NCBI GenBank assembly: GCA_964017145.1
Contig: OZ024844.1
Location: forward strand, 930,001 to 994,000
DNA: 64,000 bases
Reading direction: 5' to 3'
Source: Agrocybe praecox
Taxonomy: Eukaryota; Basidiomycota; Agaricomycetes; Agaricales; Agrocybaceae
Below are positions 3,750-13,674 of the stretch, piece after piece. A program made the translations under genes and the position numbers. The notes beneath the pieces were generated by a model, which saw nothing but the letters and a program-made list of their open reading frames with translations, made no database searches and had not been told where the DNA came from. Each line of letters begins with the position of its first letter. Within the stretch, counting starts at the first letter, position 1.

Positions 3750-4160
3750 GACAGTGTTGGGCCTAAAAATAGTTCACGTTCGTCCTTGGTCTCGTCTTTC
3801 ACGCCAGTTTTTGCGCTCCCCAGCACTTGCCGGGTTTTCAGGCTACTATGCAACAGCAATATCACCCCGCACATTCTCCAGTCACTCCTCCCATACAGCA
3901 GCGCCGACCAGCATCCAATCAGAGATTCGTCATCTAACTTTCAAGCCTCCCCGTGTCTTTTCGATTTCGTGATCTAGCTTCTACATACACAGGAGGAAGT
4001 GGCCGCCGAGGAGGACGTTCGCAAGCTCTCAGAGAGGCTCATCCGCACAATTGAACCCGACTGTCAAATCCGTTCGGTCGTACATTGAAGGAGTCAACCA
4101 CAATGGGTTTGGCTCTTTCCGACGACCGTCATGGCATACGCAAGAGCCCCCAAGACTACC
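3750..4160 (+). other. Unassigned stretch between KDZ gene and gene fragments
   Basis: About 410 bases follow the KDZ stop. A partly open frame from 3848 begins with a Gln- and Pro-rich peptide, hits a stop at 3935, and then reads a Gly/Arg-rich piece near 3990-4030. It looks like another piece of a coding sequence, but I cannot assign it. No terminal inverted repeat of the KDZ element could be recognised here by eye. Confidence 0.35.
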
Positions 4161-5018
4161 CTTGCCCTTCATTACATTATCCTCTAGTGTTTCATCAAGG
4201 TCACAATGGTCAGACCTGATTGAGATCCTACGTGATTTCGTCAACAACCAGAGTAACGTCAACCTGAGGATTTCTACTCTGCAGACGATCGGTTATATCT
4301 GCGAGGCGATTGTGAGTGTGCCATCGCGATACGCACTTGACCGGCTTCCTTATCAGTCCACAGAAACCTCAAATCTTCAGTGTCCGATCGAACGAAATCC
4401 TTACCGCTGTTATCCATGGTTCCAGGAAAGAAGAAACCTCACTGGAGGTACAATTGGCTGCAATTCACGCTTTGTTCAACTCTCTCGAGTTTGTACGCGA
4501 AACTTTCGATCGCGATGTAAGTGTTACCATTTGCAGGCCTTCCGTTCCGATTCTCACAAGATGTGCAGGGCGAGAAATTTTATATCATGCAAGTTGTGTG
4601 CGAAGCGACTCAGAACGCGTCCGTTGCCGTTCAAGTCGGCGCCTTTGAATGCCTTGTCAAAATCATGAGTCTGTACTACGACAAAATGGCATTGTACATG
4701 GAACAAGCATTGTTTGGGGTACTTATTCATCATTTTGTTCCGTGAAACTGACGTGACTAACTTTTCTATCTAGCTGACTGTTGTTGGAATGAAGCATCCT
4801 GACGAGCGGGTAGTGCTTCAAGCTGTTGAATTCTAGTCGACTGTGTGCGAGGAGGAAGTTGACCTCACGATCGAAGCGCAAGGGGTAACATGGAATCAAA
4901 TCCATCAGAGATAAGTTACTTACCTTGGCGCACAGGCTCAAGAATACGGCGACGTTCCCGAGACAGAGTCGAGGTTCTTTGCCAAAATAGCTCTTCCTGA
5001 AATCGTCCCTGTCCTCAA
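4161..5018 (+). pseudogene. Importin beta-1 (karyopherin Kap95) gene fragment
   Basis: Fragment of the nuclear import receptor importin beta (HEAT-repeat superhelix). The pieces, in order, are QWSDLIEIL with DFVNNQSN and LQTIGYICEAI (about 4200-4313), SNEILTAVIHG with EVQLAAIHALFNSLEFVRETFDRD (about 4385-4515), FYIMQVVCEATQN with GAFECLVKIMSLYYDKMALYMEQALFG (about 4570-4720), LTVVGMKHPDERV, STVCEEEVDL and FFAKIALPEIVPVL (to about 5013). Introns with GT and AG ends remain between the pieces (for example 4313-4364, 4516-4567 and 4719-4773), so this is a DNA-level copy and not a processed one. The Trp codon before STVCEEE is a TAG stop at 4834-4836. The N-terminal region before the QWSDLIEIL block and most of the C-terminal HEAT repeats are missing. 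The fragment runs in frame into an mtHsp70 piece. Confidence 0.88.
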
Positions 5019-5643
5019 GAAGGAATCCGGCGTCGACTTGAAGGGCGACCGCATGGCCATCCAGCGTGTCGGTGACTTTTGTATTCAACGCTTATCGTTC
5101 TGTTCTCTAATCACTGCTCTAGATGGTATCGTCAATGTCTCTGCTAAGGACAAGGCCACCGGAAAGGACCAGTCTATGACCATTGCTTCATCGTCCGGTC
5201 TTAGCGACAAGGACATTGAGAAGATGGTCTCTGACGCTGAGCAATTTGCTGAGTCCGATAAGGCTCGTAAGGCTCTCATCGAAGAATCTAACAAGGCTGA
5301 ATCTGTCTGTGCTGATACCGAGAAGGGTTTGTCTTTTTTGTTTCATTTTTACTTATCCGCAACTGACTCTCCTTTTTTCTTAGCAATGAACGAATTCAAG
5401 GATCAATTGGACAACGCCGAGAAGGAGAAGGTCACCAAACTCGTCACTGAACTCCGTGAACTCGCTTCCAAGGGATAATCTGGCGACGCCTCCCTTACTG
5501 CCGAGACCATCCGCGAGAAGATCTCAGAGACCCAGAATGCCTCCCTCGGTCTCTTCCAGAAGGTGTACGAGAAGCGCGCTGCTGAGAACACATCGTCATC
5601 AGAGCAGCCTGCCTCTGAGAACGAGGAAGAGAAGAAGGATTAA
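5012..5643 (+). pseudogene. Mitochondrial Hsp70 (Ssc1) gene fragment fused to importin beta fragment
   Basis: Fragment of the mitochondrial Hsp70 chaperone. It begins with KKESGVDLKGDRMAIQR in the same frame as the importin piece, then skips to DGIVNVSAKDKATGKDQSM (from about 5124), the end of the substrate-binding domain. The helical lid and C-terminus follow: SGLSDKDIEKMVSDAEQ, MNEFKDQL, KEKVTKLVTELRELASKG, SLGLFQKVYEKR, then an acidic tail to a stop at 5641-5643. The deleted middle would hold most of the nucleotide-binding domain and the first part of the substrate-binding domain. An intron of about 50 nt before DGIVNV and another near 5325-5384 are kept. A TAA at 5476-5478 replaces the Gln expected after ELASKG, which cuts off the last 55 or so residues. 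A real mtHsp70 gene must exist elsewhere. Confidence 0.88.
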
Positions 5644-11110: not shown

Positions 11111-11844
11111 ATATCTCAGATACTGTTACTCCGAGCCTTATAAAGGATTTTGATACACATTCACCCTCGTGAAATGAAAGACGGAACTTCCTAAATAGTT
11201 TTCCGTGCGCAAGCGTAAGTTCCGCCACCTTCAATGACGCCAGCAAAGCAGCTTTCTTCCGAGTGTAACTTTAAAATGCAAATCGATATATTTTGGATTC
11301 AAAGATCCGACGGAACATGCTGTTGTCGTGCAAAAAAGAATGTGAAATAGTATGTACCAAATCTAAGCAACATGAAAGCGACGGATGAAGTGCAAGATGA
11401 TTCAAGTAGTCCATGAAATATGCGAGTTATCTATAAGGAAGAGTCATTGAAACATTGTGCAATGCGAAGGTTCAAAGGAGAAGGGGGATATAGAAATTCA
11501 AATGACGGATTGATGACAATAAAATTGCGAATGCAAGAATTTAAAGACAAAGCATAGAAGGGTGATGATGGTAGAATGGGACAGAAGAGAAATGTTTTGC
11601 AGAGAAAATAAAATGTATGATACAAGTTGCTTGACATCAAATAAAAGCGAAAGCGTTTACGACCGAATAAGCCACAGGTGATTTGTTTAATGAGATGCTG
11701 ATATTCCGAGTTGCGAAGGATGCATGAGTGTTGGACATGATGGATGCTGGATGCTTGATGTGCGTAGAGAAGATTTTGACAGAGCTGGCTGAAGATTACG
11801 CCTTCCGGGTGTGACTAAGATATTTTTTTGCTGCGGCCAATATG
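11111..11844. other. No gene recognised
   Basis: About 730 bases between the LTO1 fragment and the PUF relic. Short frames exist, but none has recognisable content or splice support. The sequence is AT-rich and may be decayed coding or transposon DNA. Confidence 0.45.
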
Positions 11845-13345
11845 GGCGCGTTAATCCTTATCGGCCTGTAGAAGGACCTGTTAGCGTACGACGAAATAGC
11901 AGACGAAAATAGCGTCTTACGGTGGGCAAGACGTTGGCGATCAATTGGCTTCCCGTGACCGACAAGGCCAAGTCCACGATCATGGCGCGGCGGGCGCTAA
12001 AATGATTAGACGCCTACTTTACTCCAGACGTGCGAGGCATGCCTGTTGACCAAAGTCTGAGCCGGATCACCTAGGAGGAGCTCTGAGACGATGAGAAGGC
12101 GAACGTCTGCTTCACAATCCATAGCTTTTTCCAATACATGGCACCCATAGCAGTTTGTAGCCAGGTCAACAATACATCCGCTGAAAATGAAAATTAATTG
12201 CAGTTTAATGAAAATATTCTTCAACGTACCACATACAAGAGACGATTCTGCGCCTTTCTTCGGGAGTAGATACCGCTTCTAGGCACCTTTGGACAGCCCA
12301 GTTCCCGAATCTATATAAGATTTAGTATGTAAATTAAATCACAATGAAGGCACCAACCGATGCGCCATCATTTCGAAACCACGGGCGCATATAGCGTCCA
12401 CAATCATGGCCCGTTCTTCAAGATCGGCGACCTTCAATTGTTGCTGGAGGAAGATCGAGGCTTGTTGATCAGAAGACTTGATGATGCGAGCCACGAAAAC
12501 ATGGTAAGGAGAGGATGAAGGATGAAGCAGTTAAAGAAAGTTTATGGGCTACATATAGCGCATATATGAGCATATGTGAGATAAAATATAGTAAGAAACG
12601 TACTTCATGTGAGCTTTGAAATGATTGAGATGTAAAAGACTGTTGTTGATAGACAAAGGAAGATCGTAGGTGCTCTTCTTGACCTTGAGTGACACCAAAA
12701 TTAAAGTCAGACGCCACAGGCTTCTCAGCAGCGGAATGACGCCAGTCAGTGGGGAGGGCAGCTTGTTGCTGAGCTAGATGAGCCTGTTGGTTCAGGTTCA
12801 ATCTCCAATCCATAGGTGGAATGCGCCCAGTGTCTGTACGACGAGGCGATGGACAATTGTAATGCGAATTCGCCATATCGGATTGAGATAAAGATTGGAT
12901 ATGCTGGTTAGCAATAGGGGCGGGTGTAAGGGGCTCCGTAAAAGGTTCGAAAAAAGGCAAGTTGGCATTGCTACTAGCTGGTTGATGGCGCAGGTGGTTC
13001 AAATGCGCAAGAGGAGGGCGGAGTGCCGAAAAGTTTGCGGTCGCAATAGCTTCTTGATTTTAGCGGGGGAGTTGTTCTCAAAGTTGAGGGGGTGTTGATT
13101 GACATAGGAATAGCCAGGATGGCCGTGTTCGTAAGGAGAGTGAAGTTTGACGTCAAAGGACCTTCCACTGGGAGAAAGATCAGTCGGGATTAGCTGTCCT
13201 GATGATACAGCATGAAGCCCATATGGCCTGATGCAGATGGTTGAAGTCGGTGGGTGTACAGTTGTCGAGAAGGAGGAGGATGTTGGGAGGATGAGGTGCT
13301 TAAAACTGAAGAGGGAGGCGATGTTGGTTGAGGCGAACTAAAGGT
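11845..13345 (-). pseudogene. Pumilio/PUF-family RNA-binding protein gene, internally deleted and truncated
   Basis: PUF proteins bind 3' UTRs through eight helical repeats. Here a degenerate N-terminus (about 13345-12600, with SPYEHGHPGYSY, NFENNSPAK and RHQPASSNANLPFFEP) precedes repeat pieces SSDQQASIFLQQQLKVADLEER (12490-12420), FGNWAVQRCLEAVSTPEERRR (about 12300-12240) and GCIVDLATNCYGCHVLEKAMD with LVNRHASHVWSK (12180-12015). The reading then jumps to RRAMIVDLALSVTGSQLIANVLPT (11998-11922), which belongs to the last repeats, so several central repeats are missing. A one-base deletion near 13010 shifts the frame, a second shift lies near 13200, and ADKD is followed by a TAA stop at 11853-11851 where Gln is expected. 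Homology ends just after it. Introns are kept. Confidence 0.85.
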
Positions 13346-13674
13346 AAGGGAAGACGGAGCCAACGGCACGGAGCCGAGAGTGAACTAAAATTAGATATTG
13401 TGCGCCGTAGAATACTAAATTTAGATTATGTACCATGTAAAGTCGTCGAACAGTCTCACGCATACTCTACAAACTCTCATCCTTGGAGTGTAGACTCCAA
13501 TACTCTAGCCGGATAATGTAGAAGTTGTTAGACTCTGCGTCGGAAGAACGGCAAAAATGACGGGATTTAAATTTATTGATATTTCTAATAAGTTATAATA
13601 ATCCGGTGAACCCTTCGCTGTGCAACTGTCTCCCCCTACCCCCTCAATTGTCTTTCTCACTAATCAACATCAGC

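What the first reader, a model, noticed from the sequence alone, without database searches (positions are those of the whole stretch)
3750..13350. Field of intron-bearing housekeeping gene fragments next to a KDZ element
Within 10 kb there are parts of importin beta, mtHsp70, LTO1 and a PUF gene. All keep introns, all lack large parts, and they lie on both strands. Simple decay of a local cluster would not bring these four together. Capture of genomic fragments by a DNA transposon (Helitron- or KDZ-like), or repeated break repair with filler DNA, fits better. This may be a little-described gene-fragment trap in agaricomycetes.
Basis: inference. Interest (0 to 1): 0.8.

Follow-up and report, generated by a model that had tools for sequence, protein, structure and literature searches.

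The report
Mushroom transposon carrying host gene fragments
A large jumping gene in a mushroom genome has swallowed intron-bearing pieces of ordinary cell genes from three other places in the genome, and a distant sister element carries pieces of different genes in the same two gaps between its own genes.

Summary
The fragments are real, and they lie inside a KDZ transposon, not next to one. The element spans C5:928491-945018 (16,528 bp; up to window 15018), with CACC..GGTG ends and a perfect 8-bp target duplication, TCTTTACT. It carries two cargo blocks. Block A (3846-5901) joins pieces of a poly(A)-polymerase-like gene and importin-beta (C2) to Hsp70 (C3). Block B (10953-13338) is a trimmed copy of the neighbouring LTO1 and PUF genes (C1). 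Between them lie the element's own genes. A diverged sister element on C10 (18,090 bp, TSD CATTACCC) carries Hsp90 and G-alpha fragments in the same two spacers. Another copy, whose left end was not found, shares block B and the right end, so this cargo was captured once and then moved. Retained introns and intergenic DNA argue against RNA-mediated capture; a crude scan found no Helitron end. Most joints show 0-5 bp overlap; one does not. A more diverged KDZ-Ulp1 locus showed no cargo in the 4 kb tested. Best reading: fragment capture by a KDZ element that keeps its transposase, probably through template switching in repair. Such capture is known for other transposons; my searches found none described for KDZ.

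The parts
1..3749 (+). KDZ transposase exons and Ulp1-like C48 peptidase region; the element begins 1510 bases before the window, at C5:928491, with CACCTAAGACAGGG preceded by the TSD TCTTTACT
   Evidence: PF18758 95.5 bits on 429-911, PF02902 35.8 bits on 2879-3559; left end and TSD; pN 0.109 against pS 0.71 versus the C10 element, six pieces
3846..4065 (+). cargo block A, piece 1: from C2:2081143-2081355, poly(A)-polymerase-like gene next to importin-beta
   Evidence: 88% identity; MTPAP-like central domain in parent
4064..4211 (+). cargo block A, piece 2: from C2:2083258-2083405, 1.9 kb further along the same locus
   Evidence: 89% identity; joint
4196..5015 (+). cargo block A, piece 3: importin-beta exons and introns, from C2:2086558-2087385
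   Evidence: 93.6% identity; parent Pfam TPR_IMB1 and HEAT
5015..5075 (+). cargo block A, piece 4: Hsp70, from C3:3169106-3169166
   Evidence: 98.4% identity; parent PF00012 585 bits
5076..5901 (+). cargo block A, piece 5: Hsp70 3' exons, introns and 3' flank, from C3:3169826-3170650
   Evidence: 94.5% identity
6072..9595 (-). native element gene (open frames in exons; two of its frames tested, no Pfam match)
   Evidence: homologous frames in the same order and orientation in C10, 3369033-3365427; Pfam
9853..10913 (-). second native minus-strand coding region
   Evidence: 47% aa over 51 residues to C10:3370288-3370145, same order
10953..11108 (+). cargo block B, piece 1: LTO1 exon, from C1:4199132-4198977 (minus strand of C1)
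   Evidence: 91.7% identity; parent Yae1_N domain
11107..11850 (.). cargo block B, piece 2: DNA between LTO1 and PUF, from C1:4197453-4196718
   Evidence: 92.7% identity
11844..12006 (-). cargo block B, piece 3: PUF-side sequence, from C1:4196390-4196228
   Evidence: 93.3% identity; the 327 bp missing before it are present in the C1:4675131 copy
12009..13210 (-). cargo block B, piece 4: PUF gene exons and introns, from C1:4195566-4194357
   Evidence: 94.2% identity; parent PUF repeat
13212..13338 (-). PUF-like N-terminal piece; matches the PUF paralogue at C13:58464-58586, not the C1 parent
   Evidence: 86.6% identity
13675..14590 (+). last native element gene (start codon set by eye; the frame 14087-14590 has no Pfam match)
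   Evidence: 36-41% aa to C10:3372580-3373406; Pfam
14998..15018 (-). right terminus (CCTGCCAGCGGTG), imperfect inverted repeat of the left end, 14 of 21 bases
   Evidence: same terminus at C1:4678962, C12:513410 and C10:3374600
15019..15026 (+). right copy of the 8-bp target site duplication TCTTTACT

Best explanation
The region is a 16.5-kb KDZ-superfamily DNA transposon that still has conserved KDZ transposase and Ulp1-like protease exons and has taken up host DNA into two spacers between its own genes. Shown: the element's ends and target duplication; the three source loci; retention of introns and intergenic DNA; movement of block B joined to the element's right end. Inferred: capture happened when a break or gap inside the element was repaired from ectopic templates, the polymerase jumping between templates at short or no microhomology (the gap-filling / FoSTeST type of model). 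Internal deletions later trimmed the cargo; one of these is shown. Captures in the spacers survive because they leave the transposition genes intact.
For: KDZ and C48 domains. Both ends with 8-bp TSDs in two elements: TCTTTACT for C5, CATTACCC for C10. Parents on C2, C3 and C1. The sister element has the same gene order, with Hsp90 (C5:1620942-1623510, 92-96%) in spacer A and a G-alpha fragment (nearest C3:4605778-4607583, 87% and 77%) in spacer B. The copies at C1:4675131-4678962 and C12 share block B joined to the same right end and share the 661-bp loss, but keep the 327 bp that the window lacks; 47 of 1678 sites set window and sibling apart from the parent. Joint sequences. Nonsynonymous changes in window cargo run at 0.48 of the noncoding rate pooled over window and Hsp90 cargo, near the half expected for a decaying copy of a constrained parent. 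Transposase and Ulp1 pN 0.109, pS 0.71.
Against: A more diverged KDZ-Ulp1 locus (C1:3258979-3256682) showed no host fragment in the 4 kb next to its Ulp1 gene. Most joints have only 0-2 bp of overlap, which chance also gives, and the G-alpha cargo has 92 bp at its internal joint that match neither side of the parent. At least one skip is a later deletion, so skips cannot all be read as template jumps. Synonymous changes exceed the free-decay expectation: in window cargo 54 of 101, P 0.059, 0.035, 0.021 and 0.0066 for parent omega 0, 0.05, 0.1 and 0.2; in Hsp90 cargo 54 of 85, P 0.0005 down to 0.00002. No empty site, second strain or expression data were available.
Confidence: 0.88

Rival explanations
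1. A Helitron or other second transposon captured the fragments and then inserted into the KDZ element.
For: Helitrons in general capture and move gene fragments (PMC4289320, abstract); the blocks lie in spacers, as nested insertions could.
Against: No CTRRT with a hairpin under -9 kcal/mol just upstream on either strand of the element (a crude scan, 5'-TC not tested). In 28 pairwise comparisons of the eight block borders only two 11-bp matches, E 0.02 and 0.03. Four different cargoes in two spacers of two elements would need four nested insertions.
Confidence: 0.06
2. Chromosomal break repair with filler DNA, unrelated to the transposon's life; the KDZ genes merely surround it.
For: Short or no overlap at joints and collinear skips are also expected of end joining with filler (expectation from general knowledge).
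Against: The whole composite is enclosed by transposon ends and an 8-bp TSD, and block B is present at a second place joined to the same right end. The sister element has cargo in both same spacers.
Confidence: 0.05
3. The cargo, at least Hsp90 in the C10 element, was captured in another species or a strongly diverged strain and arrived by horizontal transfer or introgression.
For: Hsp90 cargo: 54 synonymous and 31 nonsynonymous changes, a clear synonymous excess over free decay; window cargo shows a weaker excess, 54 and 47.
Against: High allelic diversity before capture, or a period of function after capture, would give the same. No other genome could be compared.
Confidence: 0.15
4. [quoted passage not shown] This is a rival only for the inferred mechanism, not for the transposon itself.
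For: Block B is multi-copy, the class for which PMC8277862 (passages) proposes FoSTeST.
Against: Sequence anatomy alone does not separate the two routes; block A matched only its source loci and itself.
Confidence: 0.3

Closest known systems
Pack-TIR elements of animals (PMC8277862, passages read)
   Same: Host DNA captured between transposon ends, microhomology at many breakpoints, ectopic template switching proposed, some multi-copy
   Different: The words KDZ and Zisupton do not occur in that paper. Here the element also keeps conserved transposase exons and holds cargo in two separate internal spacers.
Transduplication by hAT transposons in fungi (Pyrenophora, PMC3538342, passages; Pseudocercospora, PMC6710886, abstract and outline)
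   Same: Fungal DNA transposon carries and moves a housekeeping gene (histone H3)
   Different: One gene, amplified to tens or hundreds of copies, and in Pseudocercospora inactivated by RIP; here several rearranged fragments in few copies, KDZ superfamily, and no C-to-T excess.
KDZ elements with captured TET/JBP genes (PMC12730594, abstract, section 3.2 and passages)
   Same: KDZ superfamily of Agaricomycetes carrying a captured gene
   Different: There a dioxygenase gene thought to serve the transposon; here decaying fragments of several genes. 'Gene fragment' does not occur in that paper.
KDZ1-3 of Cryptococcus (PMC12810828, passages)
   Same: KDZ transposase; 8-bp TSDs (KDZ1), 4-8 bp (KDZ2, KDZ3)
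   Different: Those are about 9-11 kb with TIRs of 139-241 bp, and 'gene fragment' does not occur in the paper; here 16.5 and 18 kb with a short imperfect inverted repeat.
Zisupton with an F-box domain in fish (PMC12062965, passages, citing older work)
   Same: A cellular-type domain associated with a KDZ-superfamily element; capture by the element is one of the readings offered
   Different: A protein domain fusion, not intron-bearing genomic fragments in spacers.
Helitron gene capture (Pleurotus, PMC4289320, abstract and outline)
   Same: Carriage of genes by a DNA transposon in an agaricomycete
   Different: [quoted passage not shown] the present element has TSDs and no Helitron end was found.

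Membership tests
KDZ superfamily | KDZ transposase catalytic domain | tested here: met
   PF18758, 95.5 bits, cut-off 26.6
KDZ superfamily | 8-bp target site duplication (reported for Zisupton, a Dileera family and Cryptococcus KDZ1) | tested here: met
   Two of the two elements with both ends found have perfect 8-bp TSDs
KDZ superfamily | Terminal inverted repeats | tested here: inconclusive
   Imperfect: 14 of 21 (C5) and 12 of 21 (C10) bases; for C5 shuffles reach 14 with frequency 0.00015
Kyakuja subgroup | 7-bp TSD and no TIR (PMC12730594) | tested here: not met
   8-bp TSDs. No transposase tree was built, so the subgroup is open
Transduplication / Pack-TIR (works like) | Host gene fragments between transposon ends, parents intact elsewhere | tested here: met
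   parents judged intact from open exons in order, with only parts of most genes held
Transduplication / Pack-TIR (works like) | Cargo moved with the element to a further site | tested here: met
   Block B with the same right end and a different flank at C1:4675131-4678962 and C12; left end and TSD of that copy not found
Pack-TYPE / Pack-MULE sensu stricto | Non-autonomous element without transposase | tested here: not met
   Conserved transposase exons present; transposase activity not testable here
Helitron | 3'-CTRR with hairpin, no TSD | tested here: not met
   crude scan negative; TSD present
Helitron | 5'-TC end | not tested
   no candidate 3' end to pair it with

The most novel reading that the evidence does not exclude
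KDZ transposons of this lineage are self-sufficient gene-fragment traps: two fixed spacers between their own genes are repeatedly filled with pieces of host genes by template switching, without loss of the transposition genes, so that unlike Pack-MULEs the capturing and the moving element are one and the same.
Probability: 0.35. Interest if true: 0.72.

Novelty: new variant of a known kind. Interest (0 to 1): 0.6.

Why it matters
KDZ elements are abundant in this genome: 176 domain matches, with 150 of 240 candidates scored (one element can give several matches). If they shuffle host gene fragments as Pack-MULEs do in plants, that is a little-noticed source of chimeric sequence in mushrooms. 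Because two related elements show separate capture histories with identified sources, the family is a convenient system for testing how cut-and-paste transposons acquire host DNA.

Tried and rejected
Helitron ends: none by a crude scan. RIP-like decay: not seen, 83 C>T/G>A against 86 T>C/A>G changes summed over the nine window segments, taking the parent as ancestral. RNA-mediated capture: rejected, since introns, intergenic DNA and 3' flank are kept. Chance terminus: of five CCTGCCAGCGGTG matches, C6:1406040 had no similarity to the held stretches and no repeated 8-mer in the 3 kb fetched, and was dropped. Left end of the C1/C12 copy: not among 8 matches to CACCTAAGACAGGG with up to one mismatch (2 exact, C5 and C10; the other 6 not pursued; the reversed control pattern gave 15). 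Prediction test: 4 kb beside a further KDZ-Ulp1 locus matched nothing else in the genome and held an 838-bp, 98.7% direct duplication. That locus is much more diverged, but this is a miss for the slot idea; only 4 of the 8 kb fetched there were searched. Selection test: used six of the nine window segments and the three Hsp90 segments; left out were the two poly(A)-polymerase-like pieces, the 156-bp piece at 11851-12006, the 127-bp piece at 13212-13338, the G-alpha cargo and the sibling. Exon borders were set by eye from open frames and splice motifs; the noncoding rate was pooled over window and Hsp90 cargo. In one search one of six transposase pieces was out of frame in C10 after an intron, and only 61 residues of it were compared. 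Microhomology lengths were read by eye and not tested against chance. No plasmid record matched block A. Strain comparison could not be done (no relatives held). The C8 locus with a truncated PUF copy near a KDZ match was looked at but its element was not delimited.
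Full report
What is there. The window is C5:930001-994000 of a 59.2-Mb assembly. Searching the own genome with 3750-6750 and 6700-15500 gave three source loci that match at 88-98%: C2:2081143-2087385, C3:3169106-3170650 and C1:4194357-4199132. PUF paralogues on C8, C9 and C13 also match block B, at 72-88%. Parents were named by Pfam: an MTPAP-like poly(A)-polymerase-like gene, importin-beta, HSP70 and a Yae1_N/LTO1 gene, and a PUF gene. About 12.6 kb of source DNA is represented by 4.3 kb in the window, in nine segments; a tenth piece, 13212-13338, follows the C13 paralogue.

Where the element ends. The C1 and C12 copies match the window up to exactly 15018 and no further. 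A diverged KDZ element on C10 ends with the same bases. The eight bases after 15018, TCTTTACT, recur directly before CACCTAAGACAGGG at C5:928491. On C10, CATTACCC likewise flanks 3356511 and 3374600, again beside CACCTAAGACAGGG. Thus the element is C5:928491-945018, 16,528 bp, and its sister C10:3356511-3374600, 18,090 bp. The ends are imperfect inverted repeats, 14 of 21 and 12 of 21 bases. Two places in the genome match the left end exactly, these two; six one-mismatch matches were not pursued.

Native genes against cargo. Translated comparison with C10 shows the same order in both: KDZ transposase and Ulp1 region (+), a long minus-strand gene, a second minus-strand coding region, and a last plus-strand gene. 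Six transposase and Ulp1 pieces together have pN 0.109 and pS 0.71, so they evolved under purifying selection. No similarity was found between the cargo blocks and the C10 element. C10 holds other host DNA in the same spacers. Between Ulp1 and the minus-strand gene lies 3362550-3364843, from the Hsp90 gene C5:1620942-1623510, in three collinear pieces at 92-96%. Between the second minus-strand region and the last gene lies 3370402-3372088, related to a G-alpha gene at C3:4605778-4607583 (87% and 77%). That G-alpha gene is 10.5-15% away and may not be the direct parent. Cargo makes up 26% of the C5 element and 22% of the C10 element.

How the pieces are joined. Within a block, pieces from one locus keep order and orientation. 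Parental DNA skipped is 1902, 3152, 659, 1523, 327 and 661 bp in the window, 218 and 60 bp in the Hsp90 cargo, and 167 bp in G-alpha. Read by eye, joints show 0-5 bp of exact overlap, mostly 0-2. The importin-to-Hsp70 joint, between two contigs, has 1 bp. Exceptions are a few bases of unclear origin at 12007-12008 and 92 bp at the G-alpha joint that match neither side of the parent. The piece at 13212-13338 follows a PUF paralogue on C13 rather than the C1 parent, so PUF may have been sampled twice, or C1 may have changed since; this is not resolved.

Movement and order of events. The copies at C1:4675131-4678962 and C12:509579-513410 are 99.9% identical to each other over 6.8 kb, flanks included, and so count as one event. 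They carry block B joined to the same right end as the window, with the same 661-bp loss. They still have the 327 bp that the window lacks, and they lack about 64 bp that the window has. Over 1678 comparable sites in block B, 47 set window and sibling apart from the parent, 68 are sibling-only, 28 window-only and 2 differ in all three. So capture came first, duplication of the element next, and further trimming after that. The DNA to the left of this sibling is a mosaic of pieces at 79-95% to C4, C12/C1, C10, C3 and C199, one with an aspartate/ornithine carbamoyltransferase domain. Whether that mosaic lies inside the element is not known, as no left end was found.

Age and decay. Parent-to-copy divergence is 5.1% (importin), 4.8% (Hsp70), 5.0% and 5.2% (block B) in the four segments over 700 bp; the five short ones are 9.4, 9.4, 8.4, 6.4 and 1.7%. 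There is no C-to-T excess. In the window cargo, nonsynonymous changes run at 0.48 of the noncoding rate (pooled with Hsp90 cargo), near what a freely decaying copy of a constrained gene should show; synonymous changes are above expectation, 54 of 101 (P 0.059, 0.035, 0.021, 0.0066 for parent omega 0, 0.05, 0.1, 0.2). In the Hsp90 cargo the excess is clear, 54 of 85 (P 0.0005 to 0.00002). So part of that divergence arose under selection: an already diverged source allele, a transfer from a related lineage, or a time of function after capture.

Controls and a failed prediction. Two 9-kb stretches of the same window outside the element matched multi-copy repeats and, once, a 105-bp stretch elsewhere in the window; not all candidates were scored, 40 of 46 and 40 of 89. 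A further KDZ-Ulp1 pair at C1:3258979-3256682 was used to test whether the first spacer is generally a capture site: 4 kb beside its Ulp1 gene matched nothing else in the genome. Spacer-A cargo is therefore present in two of the three KDZ-Ulp1 loci examined, and the case for a dedicated slot rests on two related elements.

Mechanism. Shown: a mobile unit with TSDs, three DNA-level sources, spacer position, one later deletion. Inferred: acquisition by repair of an internal gap or stalled fork with template switching, as proposed for Pack-TIRs (PMC8277862, passages). Survival bias explains the spacer position simply: captures elsewhere would break transposition genes.

Literature. Searches combining KDZ, Zisupton, Kyakuja or Dileera with fungi, capture, gene fragments, transduplication and Pack-TIR listed no paper whose title or start of abstract reports capture of host gene fragments by KDZ elements. 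Three listed papers with the closest wording were checked by passages: in PMC12510652 'gene fragments' concerns mating-type breakpoints; PMC9674265 has neither 'gene fragment' nor 'captur'; PMC12062965 describes F-box association with Zisupton domains in fish. Most other hits were seen only as listings, and only open-licence texts are held. The original KDZ description (Iyer et al. 2014) was not read and is known here through citations. Related phenomena are hAT transduplication of histone H3 in other fungi and TET/JBP capture by KDZ.

Noticed in passing
C1:4668631-4680462 and C12:503079-514910 (L034, L008, L009 and others): Nearly identical stretches on two contigs (99.9-100%); further paired matches about 70 kb away at C1:4742898-4743794 and C12:578050-578946 suggest a large segmental duplication or an assembly duplicate.
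   Followed up: partly
L034 (C1:4668631-4673630): Mosaic of abutting pieces related to C4, C12/C1, C10, C3 and C199 places at 79-95%, one with a carbamoyltransferase domain, left of the block-B sibling.
   Followed up: partly
C8:2385719-2387777 (L016, L023): PUF copy, 95% to C13:55810-57865 and shorter than it, 3.9 kb downstream of a KDZ transposase match at C8:2381439; possibly a further captured fragment. 2 kb between them were fetched and hold a 390-aa open frame.
   Followed up: partly
L071 (C1:3252601-3256600): Stretch beside a third KDZ-Ulp1 locus contains an 838-bp, 98.7% direct duplication.
   Followed up: no
window 46320-47407: High-copy repeat; the part 46571-46939 matches itself on the other strand at 91%, a near-palindrome.
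   Followed up: no
window 35669-35753: Roughly 80-bp dispersed repeat with dozens of copies listed at 84-91%.
   Followed up: no
window 16359-20060 (-): Single open frame of 1,233 aa without Pfam match; named relatives at 35-44% in Hypholoma and Psilocybe, several per species, and an unnamed 75% relative on an 11-kb contig.
   Followed up: partly
window 23630-29730 (-): Three similar open frames in a row that look like transporter (MFS-type, from memory) paralogues.
   Followed up: no
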